A DNA stretch of 39,541 nt from contig JAUIDR010000030.1 of the NCBI GenBank assembly GCA_030428565.1, positions 1-39,541 of the forward strand, read 5' to 3'. Below, piece after piece: positions 2,007 to 7,529 of the stretch. The DNA comes from Alphaproteobacteria bacterium (GTDB taxonomy: Bacteria; Pseudomonadota; Alphaproteobacteria; UBA7985; JAUIBT01). The notes below the pieces were generated by a model, which was not told the DNA's origin, ran no database searches, and saw only the letters and a list, made by a program, of their open reading frames with translations. Both the position numbers and the translations under genes were made by a program. The first letter of the stretch is position 1, and each line of letters starts with the position of its first letter.

Positions 2007-4745
2007 TCAGGTCAGCTTGCCGTGGCAGTGCTTGAACTTTTTACCAGAACCACAGGGGCAGGGCGCATTACGTGGAACCTTGCCCCAGTCTTCGCCGCCG
2101 CTCGCGGCGCCGGCAGATGCCGCGTCACTAGCGCTTCCGCCCGCCGCCGTGCTGTTGAGCGCGGCTTCTTCGGCCAGGGCCGGGTCATCGACCGCCGCAG
2201 CCTCGCGCGCTTTTTCGGCCTCGGCTTGCTGCTGGGCGTTTTGCACCTGCACGTTCAACAGGTAGCCGGTGACACTGTAACGCAAGTTGGTCAGCATTTC
2301 TTCGAACAGACCAAAGGCCTCGCGCTTGTACTCGTCTAATGGATTGCGCTGGCCGTAGGCGCGCAGGCCAACGCCGTCACGCAGCTGGATCAGCTTTTGC
2401 AGGTGCTCGCGCCAGTTTTGGTCAAACAGCTGCAACAACAGCGCTTTTTCGACATAGCGCATAGTCTCGTGCCCGACGGCGACGGCTTTTTCTGCCATGA
2501 CCTTGTTGAAGATGTCTTCGATGCGCTTAATCAGCTCTTCGTCGGCGACGCCTTCTTCTTTGGCCCACTCATCGACGGGCAGGTCGATGCGCAGCTTTTC
2601 AATCAAGGCCTGGCGCAGACCGGGCGCGTCCCACTGATCGGGGTAGGAGCCCGGCGGGATATGGGCTTGAACCAGTCCGGTGATGGCCTGCTCGCGCATA
2701 TCGCGCACCACGTCCACCACCTCTTCGGCGTCCATGATTTCCAAGCGTTGCTCGAACACCACCTTGCGTTGATCGTTCATTACGTTGTCGAACTTGACGA
2801 CGTGCTTTCGAATTTCGAAGTTGCGTTCCTCGACCTTCTTCTGCGCCTTTTCGACGGCCTTGTTGATCCAAGGGTGAACGATGGCCTCGCCTTCTTCCAG
2901 GCCCAGGCGCTTGAGCATGCCGTCGAGGCGCTCTGAACCGAAAATGCGCATCAAGTCGTCGGTCAGGCAGAGGTAGAAACGCGATTCACCGGGGTCGCCC
3001 TGACGGCCCGAACGACCGCGCAACTGGTTGTCGATGCGCCGGCTCTCATGGCGCTCGGTGCCCAGTACGAACAGGCCGCCCGCGTCCTTGACGATCTGCT
3101 TGGCTTCGCTAACGTCGCGCTTGATCTCGTCGGTAATGCGTTGGCGCTCGGCCGCGTCTTCGACGCCTTCCAAGGCTTGGCTAAGGTGCAAATCAAGATT
3201 GCCGCCCAACTGGATGTCTGTACCGCGGCCTGCCATGTTGGTGGCGATGGTCACCGCGCCCGGTCGGCCAGCATCGGCGACGATCTGGGCTTCTTGCTCG
3301 TGATAGCGCGCGTTCAGAACCTGGTGCGGGATTTTGCGCTGCTTCAGGCGTTCTGAGAACAGCTCTGACTTTTCGATCGACACTGTGCCGACCAGGACCG
3401 GCTGCTTCTTGGCGTGGCACTCTTCGATCTTGTTGATGATGGCGGCGACTTTTTCTTCAAAGGTGCGATAGACCTCGTCGTCTTGGTCCAGGCGCGCGAT
3501 GGGCTGGTTGGTGGGAATTTCCACCACGTCCAGGCCATAAATATCCAGGAATTCGTCGGCTTCGGTGGCCGCTGTACCGGTCATGCCCGCCAAGACTTCA
3601 TAGCCCCGGAACAGGTTCTGAAAGGTAATGGAGGCAACCGTGATGTTCTCGCGCTGGACGTTGACGCCTTCCTTGGCCTCCAAGGCTTGGTGCAGGCCAT
3701 CGGACAAACGGCGACCGGACATGGCGCGGCCGGTGAATTCGTCGATCAGCACCACTTCGCCTTTGCGCACCATATAGTGCACGTCTTTTTCCAGCATGGT
3801 ATTCGCGCGCAACGCCGAGTTTGCGTGGTGCAGCATGGTGATGGCCGCGGCGTCAAACAAGGACTGGCCTTCTTCCAGCAAGCCCTGTTCGGTCATTTGG
3901 GCTTCCATGAATTCCAGGCCCTCATCGGTAAAGATGACCTGGCGCTGCTTTTCGTCTTTTTCGTAGTGCTCGGGCTGAAGGCCCTTCATCATGGCGTCGA
4001 CGGCCTGATACAGCGTGCCCGAGTCGTCCGAAGGGCCCGAGATAATCAAGGGGGTGCGCGCTTCGTCAATCAAGATGGAGTCGACTTCGTCGACGATGCC
4101 AAAGTGGAAGCCGCGCTGCACCATGTCAGCTTTGCGGTGCTCCATATTATCACGCAGGAAATCGAAGCCGATTTCATTGTTGGTGCCATAGGTCACATCA
4201 CAGGCATAAGCGGCACGACGCGCGGCCTTGACCTGGTCATAGGGGGTGTCTTCGGGCAGGCCCATGGATTGGCTGATACAGCCGGTGGTCATGCCCAAAA
4301 AGCCGTAGACCTTGCCCATGTCGGCCGCATCACGCTGGGCCAGATAGTCGTTCACGGTCACAACGTGGGCACCATGGCCGGTCAGGGCGTTGAGGTAGAT
4401 GGGCAGCGTGGCGGTCAGGGTCTTACCTTCACCGGTCTTGGCTTCGGCAATCATGCCTTGGTGCAGTACGATACCCGCCACCAACTGGACGTCATAGTGG
4501 CGCAGACCCAAGGTACGCTTGGCCGCTTCGCGCACGACGGCAAAGGCTTCTTGCAGCAGGTCGTCAAGATCTTCGCCTTGCTCTAAACGGTCGCGAAATT
4601 CTTGGGTCTTGGCTCTCAGCTCATCGTCGTTGAGCGCCTCAATTTCGGGCTCCAGCGCGTTGATCGCAACCACGTCCTTATTCAGCTTTTTAAGGTAGCG
4701 ATCGTTCGCCGAGCCGACGACACGGCGGATGAGAGATTGCAGCAT
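2007..4745 (-). CDS. secA: preprotein translocase ATPase SecA
   Basis: SecA is the ATPase motor that pushes unfolded preproteins through SecYEG; it cycles between cytosol and inner membrane. From the chosen ATG at 4745 the product is 912 aa, the usual length. Visible are Walker A (AKTGEGKT, about residues 102-109), the DEVD Walker B box (about 219-222) followed by [11 protein letters not shown], helicase-type motifs such as [12 protein letters not shown], and a C-terminal zinc tail [13 protein letters not shown] that binds SecB and ribosomes in other SecA proteins. The reading frame extends 13 codons further upstream, but [12 protein letters not shown] matches the family start and has TGAGG upstream. 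A sigma70-type promoter and a terminator flank it, so it appears monocistronic. Identification is secure. Confidence 0.98.
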
Positions 4746-4807
4746 GGGGTCCTCAGGGGGTAATATAGCGCCGATGGCAGCCAATATAGAATGTCAAATG
4801 CCGCCAA

Positions 4808-4836
4808 CACATAAGAGCGCAACCTGGCCCTGTCAA
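4808..4836 (-). promoter_or_regulatory. probable sigma70 promoter of secA
   Basis: On the minus strand TTGACA (4831-4836) is separated by exactly 17 bp from TATGTG (4808-4813). The predicted transcript would start near 4800 and have a leader of about 55 bases before the secA ATG at 4745. The -35 box is perfect and the -10 box moderate. Confidence 0.6.
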
Positions 4837-4990
4837 TTGAACCAAGTGCCCGGGCCCTACAACGAGGGCGGCCAAGTGGCTCTCTGTGCTGCGGTGAGCC
4901 GGAGATTGGGCGGCGCTGTCGATCTCGGCCACGGCTCAATCGAGGCCGTTCTAACGGACTCCGACGGCCAGCGGCAGATGGCGCCCAGCG

Positions 4991-5302
4991 CTATTCTTCG
5001 CTGCGTTCGTCTTTGTCGGTCTTTTCTTTGCCCAAAGCAGACGCCAAGGTCTTGCCTTCGGGCAGAACCGTCACGCTTTGGCCGTCGTAGTCCAGAATGC
5101 CGGTAATCAAAGCCTGGCAGGCCAAGCGCACACTGCGGGGAATAACGATGGCTTTACCATCGCGCTCACCCTTCTCGTAATACTGGATGATGCGCAGCTT
5201 GAGACCCAGCGCCTTCGCCGCTTCTTTTTGAGAGAGTCCAAGCTTGCGGCGCCAATTCTTGAAGGCCTCCGCAGACATAACTTGTTTTTTGGATTTTTTC
5301 AT
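4991..5302 (-). CDS. Xre-family helix-turn-helix regulator
   Basis: This encodes a small DNA-binding protein of 103 aa if read from the ATG at 5302 (MKKSKKQVMSAEAF). A Cro/C1-type HTH covers about residues 12-40, with the typical pattern WRRKLGLSQKEAAKALGL and the recognition-helix region RIIQYYEKGER. The remainder is short, charged and probably a dimerisation or disordered tail. A second start at 5278 (MSAEAF) is equally possible, and neither has a clear ribosome-binding site. The longer open frame upstream is not convincing. The gene is upstream of secA on the same strand but 245 bp away with its own spacing, and it is divergent from the 41-codon unit at 5447. It could control that unit and itself. 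Confidence 0.8.
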   Translation of the reverse strand: MKKSKKQVMSAEAFKNWRRKLGLSQKEAAKALGLKLRIIQYYEKGERDGKAIVIPRSVRLACQALITGILDYDGQSVTVLPEGKTLASALGKEKTDKDERSEE

Positions 5303-5377
5303 TCTTTTGGCGGGCAATGGGAGGCTGAAGCGCCGGTTGATCCGACTCCGACAACTTAGACTTGTGCGAAAAATCAT

Positions 5378-5405
5378 GCAATTAATTCTTGCCAAAGCGC
5401 AATTA
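5378..5405. promoter_or_regulatory. two GCAATTA direct repeats, candidate operator
   Basis: GCAATTA occurs at 5378-5384 and again at 5399-5405, 21 bp apart start to start (two helical turns). Together they bracket the -35 box and spacer of the rightward promoter in the gap between the divergent Xre gene and the small ORF. This geometry fits binding by a small HTH dimer. Binding by the neighbouring Xre protein is inference. Confidence 0.4.
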
Positions 5406-5416
5406 GTGCATATATT
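5389..5416 (+). promoter_or_regulatory. probable sigma70 promoter of the 41-codon unit
   Basis: TTGCCA (5389-5394), a 16-bp spacer and TATATT (5411-5416) precede the AAAGGAG and GTG of the small ORF. The local AT-richness is unusual for this chromosome. Transcription would start near 5423. Confidence 0.55.
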
Positions 5417-5446
5417 GGAATCAACTTGTAGAGAAAGGAGCACATC

Positions 5447-5572
5447 GTGCGCTATTTAGTCGTATGGAAGGCCATGAGTGCAGCCAGCAAACGGAGCGAT
5501 CCGGTCAAAGAGCGCGAAAAGCGCATGGCCTACTCATCTCCGCTGCCGCCCTTGGATAAGAAATCTTCCTAA
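5447..5572 (+). CDS. unrecognised 41-aa protein
   Basis: GTG at 5447 opens 41 codons ending at TAA 5570-5572. The start is supported by a near-perfect Shine-Dalgarno AAAGGAG (5434-5440) six bases upstream. The product starts MRYLVVWKAMSAASKR, is basic in its middle (VKEREKRM) and ends in a proline-rich segment (SSPLPPLDKKSS). It has no signal peptide or membrane segment. A promoter lies at 5389-5416 and a strong terminator at 5621-5657, so the unit is a free-standing transcript of about 235 nt, divergent from an Xre regulator. I do not recognise the family. It might be a small regulator partner, or the transcript may also act as an RNA. Confidence 0.6.
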   Translation: MRYLVVWKAMSAASKRSDPVKEREKRMAYSSPLPPLDKKSS

Positions 5573-5620
5573 AGGGCGTCGGTCACTGGCTGACTGAACG
5601 TTCTTCTGTTTCCAAAGACA

Positions 5621-5657
5621 AAGACCCTCAGAATCGCCTCTGAGGGTCTTTTCTTTT
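5621..5657 (+). terminator. strong rho-independent terminator
   Basis: A perfect 12-bp stem AAGACCCTCAGA / TCTGAGGGTCTT with a six-base loop is followed by a T-rich run (TTTTCTTTT). It lies 48 bases past the stop of the 41-codon ORF and ends that short transcript. Confidence 0.9.
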
Positions 5658-5852
5658 GCGTTTTCTAGGGGCCTAAGCTCTGTGGGTTCTAGAGCGCTGC
5701 AAAAGCGCAGGCCCCCAACGAGGCGCGATGGGACAAGGATGCGGCCTTGCTTTAAAAACAAGACCTTGGAGCACGACGGCGGGCGTCAGGCCAGCGGCCA
5801 ATGCTCCAGGTCCTGATGCCCCAATTCCAGAATCACTAATGCCCAGCGCTTT
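5658..5852. other. intergenic, nothing recognised
   Basis: Between the terminator of the small unit and repeat copy C there is no coding region with convincing start or codon use, and no further regulatory signal was seen. Confidence 0.5.
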
Positions 5853-5957
5853 AGCGCAAGCCGTGAATGAGCGGCAACACGCGTGAGCATGGACTTGCAC
5901 AAGAAATCGGTCAGCGAGAGCGGATGGACTGTTGAAGCACCGGCGCCCGACGCTCTA
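5853..5957 (-). repeat. dispersed intergenic repeat, copy C
   Basis: This copy reads on the minus strand relative to copies A and B. It contains the conserved blocks gcgcaagccg, ggcaacacgcgtgagc, tggacttgc, gaaatcggtcag and gagcggatgg, then the left arm gcgcccgacgctctag. It lies directly downstream of purH, and its left arm is expanded into the 15-bp tandem repeat that reaches the purH stop codon. Confidence 0.9.
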
Positions 5958-5987
5958 GCGCCCGACGCTCTAGCGCCCGGCGCTTTA
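5943..5987. repeat. tandem repeat, 15-bp unit x3, ending in the purH stop codon
   Basis: The unit gcgcccgacgctcta is present at 5943-5957 and 5958-5972, and a variant gcgcccggcgcttta at 5973-5987. The last three bases of the third unit are the complement of the purH TAA. The unit equals the left arm of the dispersed repeat. Confidence 0.9.
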
Positions 5988-7529
5988 GTGATTGAAGTGG
6001 CGCATGCCGGTAAACAGCATGGCTAGGCCTGCCTCATTGGCGGCCTGGATGACCTCATCATCGCGCATGGAGCCGCCCGGCTGGATGACCGCTTTGGCAC
6101 CCGCGTCGATGGCCATTTGAATCCCGTCAGCGAAGGGGAAAAAGGCATCCGATGCCAGGACGCAGCCTTGGGCCTCATCACCGGCTTTCCAGGTGGCAAT
6201 GCGCGCGGCGTCAACCCGGCTCATTTGCCCGGCGCCGATGCCAACGGTGCGGCCGTCTTTGACCAAGACAATCGCGTTCGATTTGACGTGCTTGGCGACT
6301 CTAAAGGCAAATTCTAGATCGGCGCGTTCGCTGTCGCTGGCTTGGCGTTGGGTGACACAATGGATCTTGTCGGGATCGGCCCAGCTTTGATCGCGGTTTT
6401 GCAGCAAGAAGCCGCCGCGCAGGGTCTTGACGATCAGGCTCGACTCGCTGGCTGGCGTCTGATCGCCGGTGATCAACAGGCGCAGATTCTTTTTAGCGGT
6501 GAACAGATCCTTGGCTTCATCACTGACGCTGGGCGCGACCACGACCTCGGTGAAAATCTGCGTGATGAGCTCAGCGGTCTTGGCGTCGAGCTGCCGGTTG
6601 ACCGCCACAATGCCACCAAAGGCCGAGGTGGTATCGCAGGCATAGGCCTGTTGGTAGGCTTCGACCAGATTGGCCCCTACGGCCACCCCACAGGGGTTGG
6701 CGTGCTTGATGATGGCCACCGCCGGTTCGCGGAATTCGGACACCAAGTTCAACGCAGCGTCGGCGTCATTGATATTGTTGTAGGACAGCGGCTTGCCTTG
6801 CACCAAGGTGGCAGCGGCCAGACCTTCGGGTCGGCTACCGCTGGCGTACCAAGCCGCGCCCTGGTGGGGGTTTTCGCCATAGCGCAGGGTGGCCAAGCGC
6901 TTGCCAGCCAAACTGAATTCTTCGGGAAAGTCTTCCTGATCTTTATCGGCCAACCAACGCGCAATATCCGAATCATAGGCGGCGGTGTGCGCAAAGGCTT
7001 TGCGCGCTAGCTTTCGGCGCAGGCCATCGCCAAGACCGCCTTGCTGTTCTGCTCCTGCTAGCGCCTCTTGCACGGCGGCGTAGTCGTTGGGGTCGACCAC
7101 CACAGCAACGCTGGCGTGGTTCTTGGCCGCCGCGCGCAGCATGGCGGGCCCGCCAATGTCGATGTTTTCAACGCAGGTATCAAAGTCGGCGCCGCTGGCC
7201 AGCGTTTGGCGGAAGGAATAGAGGTTAACAACCAATAGGTCGATAGGCGCGATGCCTTCGGCCTCCATGGTGGCGACGTGCTCGGGCTTGCGGCGATCGC
7301 CCAACAGGCCGCCGTGAATTTTGGGGTGCAAGGTCTTAACGCGGCCCTCCAAGATTTCGGCTTGTCCGGTGTGTTCGGCGACTTCGGTCACGGCTAGGCC
7401 TTCGGTCTGCAGCAAGCGAGCGGTGCCGCCAGTCGAGAGCAGCTCAACGCCTTGCTCGGCCAAGAAGCGAGCGAAGGGCAATAGGCCGGATTTGTCAGAA
7501 ACGGAAAGCAGGGCGCGGCGAGGGAACAT
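5985..7529 (-). CDS. purH: bifunctional AICAR transformylase / IMP cyclohydrolase PurH
   Basis: PurH catalyses the last two steps of de novo IMP synthesis in the cytosol: formylation of AICAR with 10-formyl-THF, then ring closure. The 514-aa product has the usual two domains. An N-terminal MGS-like cyclohydrolase domain (about residues 1-145) carries the [21 protein letters not shown] and LVVNLY motifs. The C-terminal transformylase domain carries [11 protein letters not shown] and [10 protein letters not shown] and ends in RHFNH, close to the family's usual C-terminus. The ATG at 7529 is preceded by AAGAGAC. It follows purD on the same strand with a 132-bp gap and probably shares its transcript. 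The stop codon lies in a short tandem repeat. Confidence 0.98.

What the first reader, a model, noticed from the sequence alone, without database searches (positions are those of the whole stretch)
5303..5657. Self-contained 41-codon unit divergent from an Xre regulator
Promoter (TTGCCA-N16-TATATT), near-perfect AAAGGAG, GTG ORF of 41 codons and a perfect 12-bp terminator stem lie within about 270 bp. The product (MRYLVVWKAMSAASKR...) is not one I know. The layout, with an Xre gene reading away from it, resembles small regulated modules such as antitoxin-toxin, anti-repressor or sRNA units.
Basis: partly seen in the sequence, partly recalled or inferred. Interest (0 to 1): 0.6.

Follow-up and report, generated by a model that had tools for sequence, protein, structure and literature searches.

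The report
Repressor controlling a hidden 41-residue protein
The short reading frame is a real, conserved gene for a 41-residue protein, read away from a small repressor gene and very probably switched off by it; the same repressor, DNA binding site and short-protein layout recurs in several distant families of Alphaproteobacteria and appears to have no name.

Summary
In detail: promoter, ribosome site, 41-codon GTG ORF, terminator and divergent Xre gene are all at the stated places. The ORF is a protein gene, conserved in all three held species of the genus (dN/dS 0.04-0.08), always beside the Xre. Exact relatives stop at the genus, but the module does not. Close relatives of the Xre in five other alphaproteobacterial families also have a divergent 23-57 aa ORF with a similar N-terminus (M, 2-3 residues, hydrophobics, aromatic/W) and a mostly basic tail. 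A profile trained without the window genus ranks the window ORF first among all non-training sequences of 910 candidate ORFs. A palindromic site (TGCGCAC-N3-GTGCGCA) lies between -35 and -10; the window's site plus -10 matches one from another family at 19 of 21 bases. A second window site covers the ribosome site and GTG start. The Xre core is distantly related to the repressor Aca1. Best reading: an Aca-like repressor silencing a small effector protein. Binding, repression and the effector's job are inferred. Toxin-antitoxin and sRNA readings are not supported. Other family members carry an unrelated ~80 aa partner in the same slot.

The parts
4991..5302 (-). Xre/HTH_3 regulator, 103 aa, Aca1-like HTH core, divergent from the small ORF
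   Evidence: Pfam HTH_3 E 3.8e-7; 93% and 86% identical in G001, G002; core profile hits Aca1 chains E 5e-6
5389..5394 (+). -35 element TTGCCA
   Evidence: f11 loci carry TTGACA at the equivalent place
5396..5412 (.). operator site 1 AGCGCAATTAGTGCATA, in the -35/-10 spacer and overlapping the first two bases of the -10
   Evidence: 10 of 14 matches to TGCGCACNNNGTGCGCA; with the -10 matches the f11 genome G249 site 19/21, next best place in the window 14/21; conserved in G001, G002
5411..5416 (+). -10 element TATATT
5434..5440 (+). ribosome binding site AAAGGAG
   Evidence: identical in three species
5437..5453 (.). probable operator site 2 GGAGCACATCGTGCGCT over the ribosome site and start codon
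   Evidence: 11 of 14 consensus matches, reached by 1-2 of 200 shuffles in G000 and G001; GGAGCACAAAGTGCGCT in G002
5447..5572 (+). small gene, 41 aa MRYLVVWKAMSAASKRSDPVKEREKRMAYSSPLPPLDKKSS, GTG start
   Evidence: dN/dS 0.04-0.08 in three species; N-terminal pattern shared with divergent partners of Xre relatives; model with helices 2-15 and 19-29, pLDDT 70
5620..5651 (+). intrinsic terminator; purH converges from the other side
   Evidence: related hairpins with changed stem bases in G001 and G002

Best explanation
A two-gene regulatory module: a small autorepressor of the Xre/HTH_3 class with an Aca1-like HTH, and a divergently transcribed gene for a 41-residue basic, helical protein. Proposed working: an Xre dimer binds a palindrome filling the -35/-10 spacer of the small gene's promoter and a second palindrome over the ribosome site and start codon, excluding RNA polymerase, and probably limits its own transcription from the same intergenic region. 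When repression is lifted by a signal not identified here, a monocistronic mRNA of about 230 nt is made and ends at the terminator. The protein then acts as a small effector through its conserved hydrophobic N-terminal helix, with a variable basic tail. Shown: coding constraint, linkage, recurrence, conserved sites, N-terminal pattern. Inferred: binding, repression, transcript, effector role.
For: Coding constraint on both genes. The pair stays together in all three genus members. Xre relatives in families f2, f11, f18, f94, f123 have a divergent SD-preceded 23-57 aa ORF; dN/dS is 0.08-0.26 in f123 and 0.23 in f2. The N-terminal profile built without f1 scores the window ORF above all 806 background N-termini and above every other non-training ORF among 910 (9.2 against 4.4). 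Palindromic sites of 12-14/14 matches lie in the slot in most families, against a shuffle mean near 8.7, mostly spaced 31-34 bp when there are two. The site pattern alone, scanned in 385 genomes, found 9 genomes, 7 of them Xre carriers; 7 of 10 sites lie beside the Xre and the reversed control found none (hypergeometric 1e-6). A terminator and a convergent gene follow the small gene here and in f123, which argues against a leader peptide.
Against: No expression, binding or phenotype data exist here. Window site 1 is a weak match to the general consensus (10/14); its support is the match to the f11 site and conservation in the genus. Sequence similarity of the small proteins across families is limited to about 12 N-terminal residues, so common descent is likely but not proven. 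Some f11 pairs have high dN/dS (0.28-0.66). Several family members (f6, f107, f112, f139, G074) show neither a clear site nor a small partner. An anti-repressor role for the protein cannot be excluded.
Confidence: 0.72

Rival explanations
1. Anti-repressor loop: the 41-residue protein binds the Xre and lifts its own repression, giving a bistable switch.
For: The conserved N-terminal helix always sits beside the same Xre subfamily; divergent repressor/anti-repressor layouts are known in phages (general knowledge).
Against: The same Xre subfamily with the same sites carries an unrelated ~80 aa partner in other families, which fits a shared controller of different effectors better than one conserved binding partner.
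Confidence: 0.15
2. Toxin-antitoxin module with the small protein as toxin and the Xre as antitoxin.
For: Small basic protein with a hydrophobic helix; repressor beside it; HTH similarity to antitoxin regulators such as MqsA.
Against: Divergent genes rather than one operon; no toxin family match in Pfam, NCBIfam or PADLOC; no stretch hydrophobic enough to span a membrane.
Confidence: 0.06
3. Regulatory RNA: the transcript is an sRNA and the ORF incidental.
For: Short transcript with a strong terminator; whole-transcript fold z -4.1; low synonymous change between G000 and G001 (P about 0.003).
Against: Without the terminator z is -1.4; changes versus G002 fall mostly at third codon positions; the low synonymous change can be explained by operator site 2 and the start region.
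Confidence: 0.03
4. Chance ORF beside an ordinary Xre gene.
For: No match in any protein family library; no exact relatives beyond the genus among 385 genomes.
Against: Strong purifying selection and recurrence of site and pattern in other families.
Confidence: 0.02

Closest known systems
Anti-CRISPR-associated (Aca) repressors, Aca1 in particular
   Same: Small HTH protein; core profile matches Aca1 chains 7vjn, 7c0g, 7fa3 at E 5e-6 to 1e-5. Aca proteins bind one or two inverted repeats within the core promoter and repress it (PMC9410906), the geometry seen here.
   Different: aca genes follow acr genes in one operon (PMC9410906); here the small gene is divergent, no acr is known, and the locus sits among housekeeping genes.
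Caulobacter RtrA/RtrB and phage TgrL XRE regulators
   Same: Alphaproteobacterial XRE factors studied as regulators of holdfast development, a process that turns on the small protein HfiA (PMC10688885).
   Different: Their sequence relation to this Xre was not tested here; the published motif has one strong and one weak half-site, whereas the site here has two.
Xre-type type II toxin-antitoxin operons (MqsA, HipB, RES/Xre)
   Same: HTH similarity only.
   Different: Divergent genes, no toxin family match.

Membership tests
Xre / HTH_3 transcription regulators | HTH_3 domain above the curated cut-off | tested here: met
   30.5 bits against a cut-off of 23
Aca (anti-CRISPR-associated) proteins | Aca-like HTH sequence | tested here: inconclusive
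   Aca1 chains matched at E 5e-6 by the family profile, as remote HTH relatives; no Aca-specific model was available
Aca (anti-CRISPR-associated) proteins | inverted repeat(s) in the core promoter of the controlled gene | tested here: met
   sites at 5396-5412 and 5437-5453 and in related loci; binding itself not tested
Aca (anti-CRISPR-associated) proteins | encoded in one operon with an anti-CRISPR gene | tested here: not met
   the only close partner is divergent; no family match for the small protein
Type II toxin-antitoxin system | toxin and antitoxin genes in one operon | tested here: not met
   divergent orientation in every locus where the pair was found
Type II toxin-antitoxin system | partner is a toxin neutralised by the HTH protein | not testable with these tools
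   no toxin family match; needs an expression assay
Divergent Xre / short-protein module described here | divergent SD-preceded ORF of about 23-57 aa with the N-terminal pattern | tested here: met
   held-out profile score above all background
Divergent Xre / short-protein module described here | palindromic site between -35 and -10 of the small gene | tested here: met
   19/21 match to the G249 site at 5396
Regulatory sRNA | constraint on RNA structure rather than codons | tested here: not met

The most novel reading that the evidence does not exclude
An unnamed, widespread class of alphaproteobacterial modules in which one conserved Aca1-like repressor and its operator control exchangeable small proteins (23-57 aa type A, ~80 aa type B) that act as host-directed or mobile-element effectors, so that the operator and repressor could be used to find further hidden small proteins.
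Probability: 0.3. Interest if true: 0.75.

Novelty: new variant of a known kind. Interest (0 to 1): 0.52.

Why it matters
Small proteins of 20-60 residues are often missed by annotation. A repressor plus an operator conserved across families gives an independent handle for finding them, and the repeated repressor/small-protein linkage makes their function directly testable. It also shows an Aca-like repression layout (inverted repeats inside the core promoter) serving a chromosomal, divergent gene in Alphaproteobacteria.

Tried and rejected
Weak order-level hits to the ORF matched only its tail, inside other frames, and were dropped; the 385-genome profile search gave about as many weak hits as expected by chance. 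Viral contigs hold no relative of the small protein and only distant Xre relatives, mostly of a phage-type subfamily without this site. Plasmid and phage records gave only 42-44% identical Xre relatives. A first regular-expression scan of Xre loci failed and was redone. Rfam found nothing in the window. An alignment of loci in the wrong orientation was discarded. Outside Alphaproteobacteria only weak Xre matches appeared. Literature searches found no description of the pair; the library is open-access only.

Full report
Observation. The promoter alone is unremarkable (1 found, 0.5 expected in shuffles). The window lies in a 3.5 Mb alphaproteobacterial genome, and the unit lies between secA and purH.

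The ORF is a gene. All three held genomes of the genus carry it (95% and 83% identity). Against G002 the changes by codon position are 7, 2, 18; dN/dS is 0.042, 0.074 and 0.083 in the three comparisons. The Xre is also under purifying selection (0.04-0.13). Exact relatives were not found outside the genus: 385 alphaproteobacterial genomes, a public genome collection (only the two congeners), viral contigs. purH was found in six genomes of the sister families; in the four whose flank was printed, secA follows it closely with no room for the module, so the module was inserted here or lost there.

Following the Xre. A profile of the Xre core finds 36 of 385 alphaproteobacterial genomes at E 1e-8, with about 30 strong members. 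Upstream of them on the other strand, a Shine-Dalgarno-preceded short ORF was found in families f2, f11, f18, f94 and f123, for example MLGHFIYWKFVFKDMSNKNKKSKK and MLKNMMYWLSFGITPRREQ... They share the start: M, two or three residues, hydrophobic residues, an aromatic or W near position 8, then a usually basic tail. These ORFs were picked by eye for that look, so the fair test is the window ORF, which was given beforehand. A profile trained without the window genus scores it above all 806 background N-termini, and it and its congeners are the best of all non-training ORFs among 910 (9.2; next 4.4). Other family members (f31, f67, f99, f108, f110, f125) have an unrelated ~80 aa ORF in the same slot.

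The operator. Setting out the upstream DNA by start codon showed a palindrome, TGCGCAC-N3-GTGCGCA, in the promoter spacer. In most families it scores 12-14 of 14 with shuffles near 8.7. Sites often come in pairs 31-34 bp apart. As an independent test, the pattern TGCGCANNNNGTGCGYATA was scanned in 385 genomes: 10 sites in 9 genomes, 7 of them Xre carriers, 7 sites beside the Xre, reversed control zero (P 1e-6). The window's own site 1 is only 10/14, but with the -10 it matches the f11 genome G249 at 19/21 bases, where the next best place in the window reaches 14. Site 2 (5437-5453, 11/14) covers the ribosome site and the GTG start and is kept in all three species; this may explain both the GTG start and the low synonymous change between G000 and G001 (inference).

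What the parts are. The Xre has an HTH_3 domain; its family profile matches solved Aca1 chains at E 5e-6. Aca proteins repress through one or two inverted repeats within the core promoter (PMC9410906). The small protein has no family match. A moderate-confidence model (pLDDT 70) gives helices 2-15 and 19-29; the protein carries net charge +6 and no membrane-spanning stretch. A terminator and convergent purH follow, as a terminator and convergent gene do in f123, so it is not a leader peptide.

Verdict. Shown: coding, linkage, recurrence, conserved sites, shared N-terminal pattern. Inferred: binding, repression, the transcript, the effector role. Limits: no expression or binding data; homology of the small proteins rests on about 12 residues; several family members lack both site and partner.

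Noticed in passing
window 5851-5958: A stretch of about 110 bases recurs at several places in this genome and in G001 (83-89% identity) and once in G002 (79%): a dispersed repeat of the genus.
   Followed up: no
L087, L088, L092, L097, L099, L101, L149 upstream of the Xre: A different ~80 aa divergent ORF, with no Pfam match for the four tested, occupies the small-protein slot in families f31, f67, f99, f108, f110, f125 under the same kind of site.
   Followed up: partly
L090 offsets 151 and 490 upstream of the Xre: Two short ORFs of the module type in tandem in G157, only the first preceded by a clear site.
   Followed up: partly
L159 1501-1519 and L164 1501-1519: Two copies of the site without an Xre nearby, in G233 and G122; L164 has a second similar palindrome beside it and lies near a contig end.
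   Followed up: partly
window 2007-7529: secA and purH flank the module here, while in sister families purH and secA follow each other closely.
   Followed up: yes
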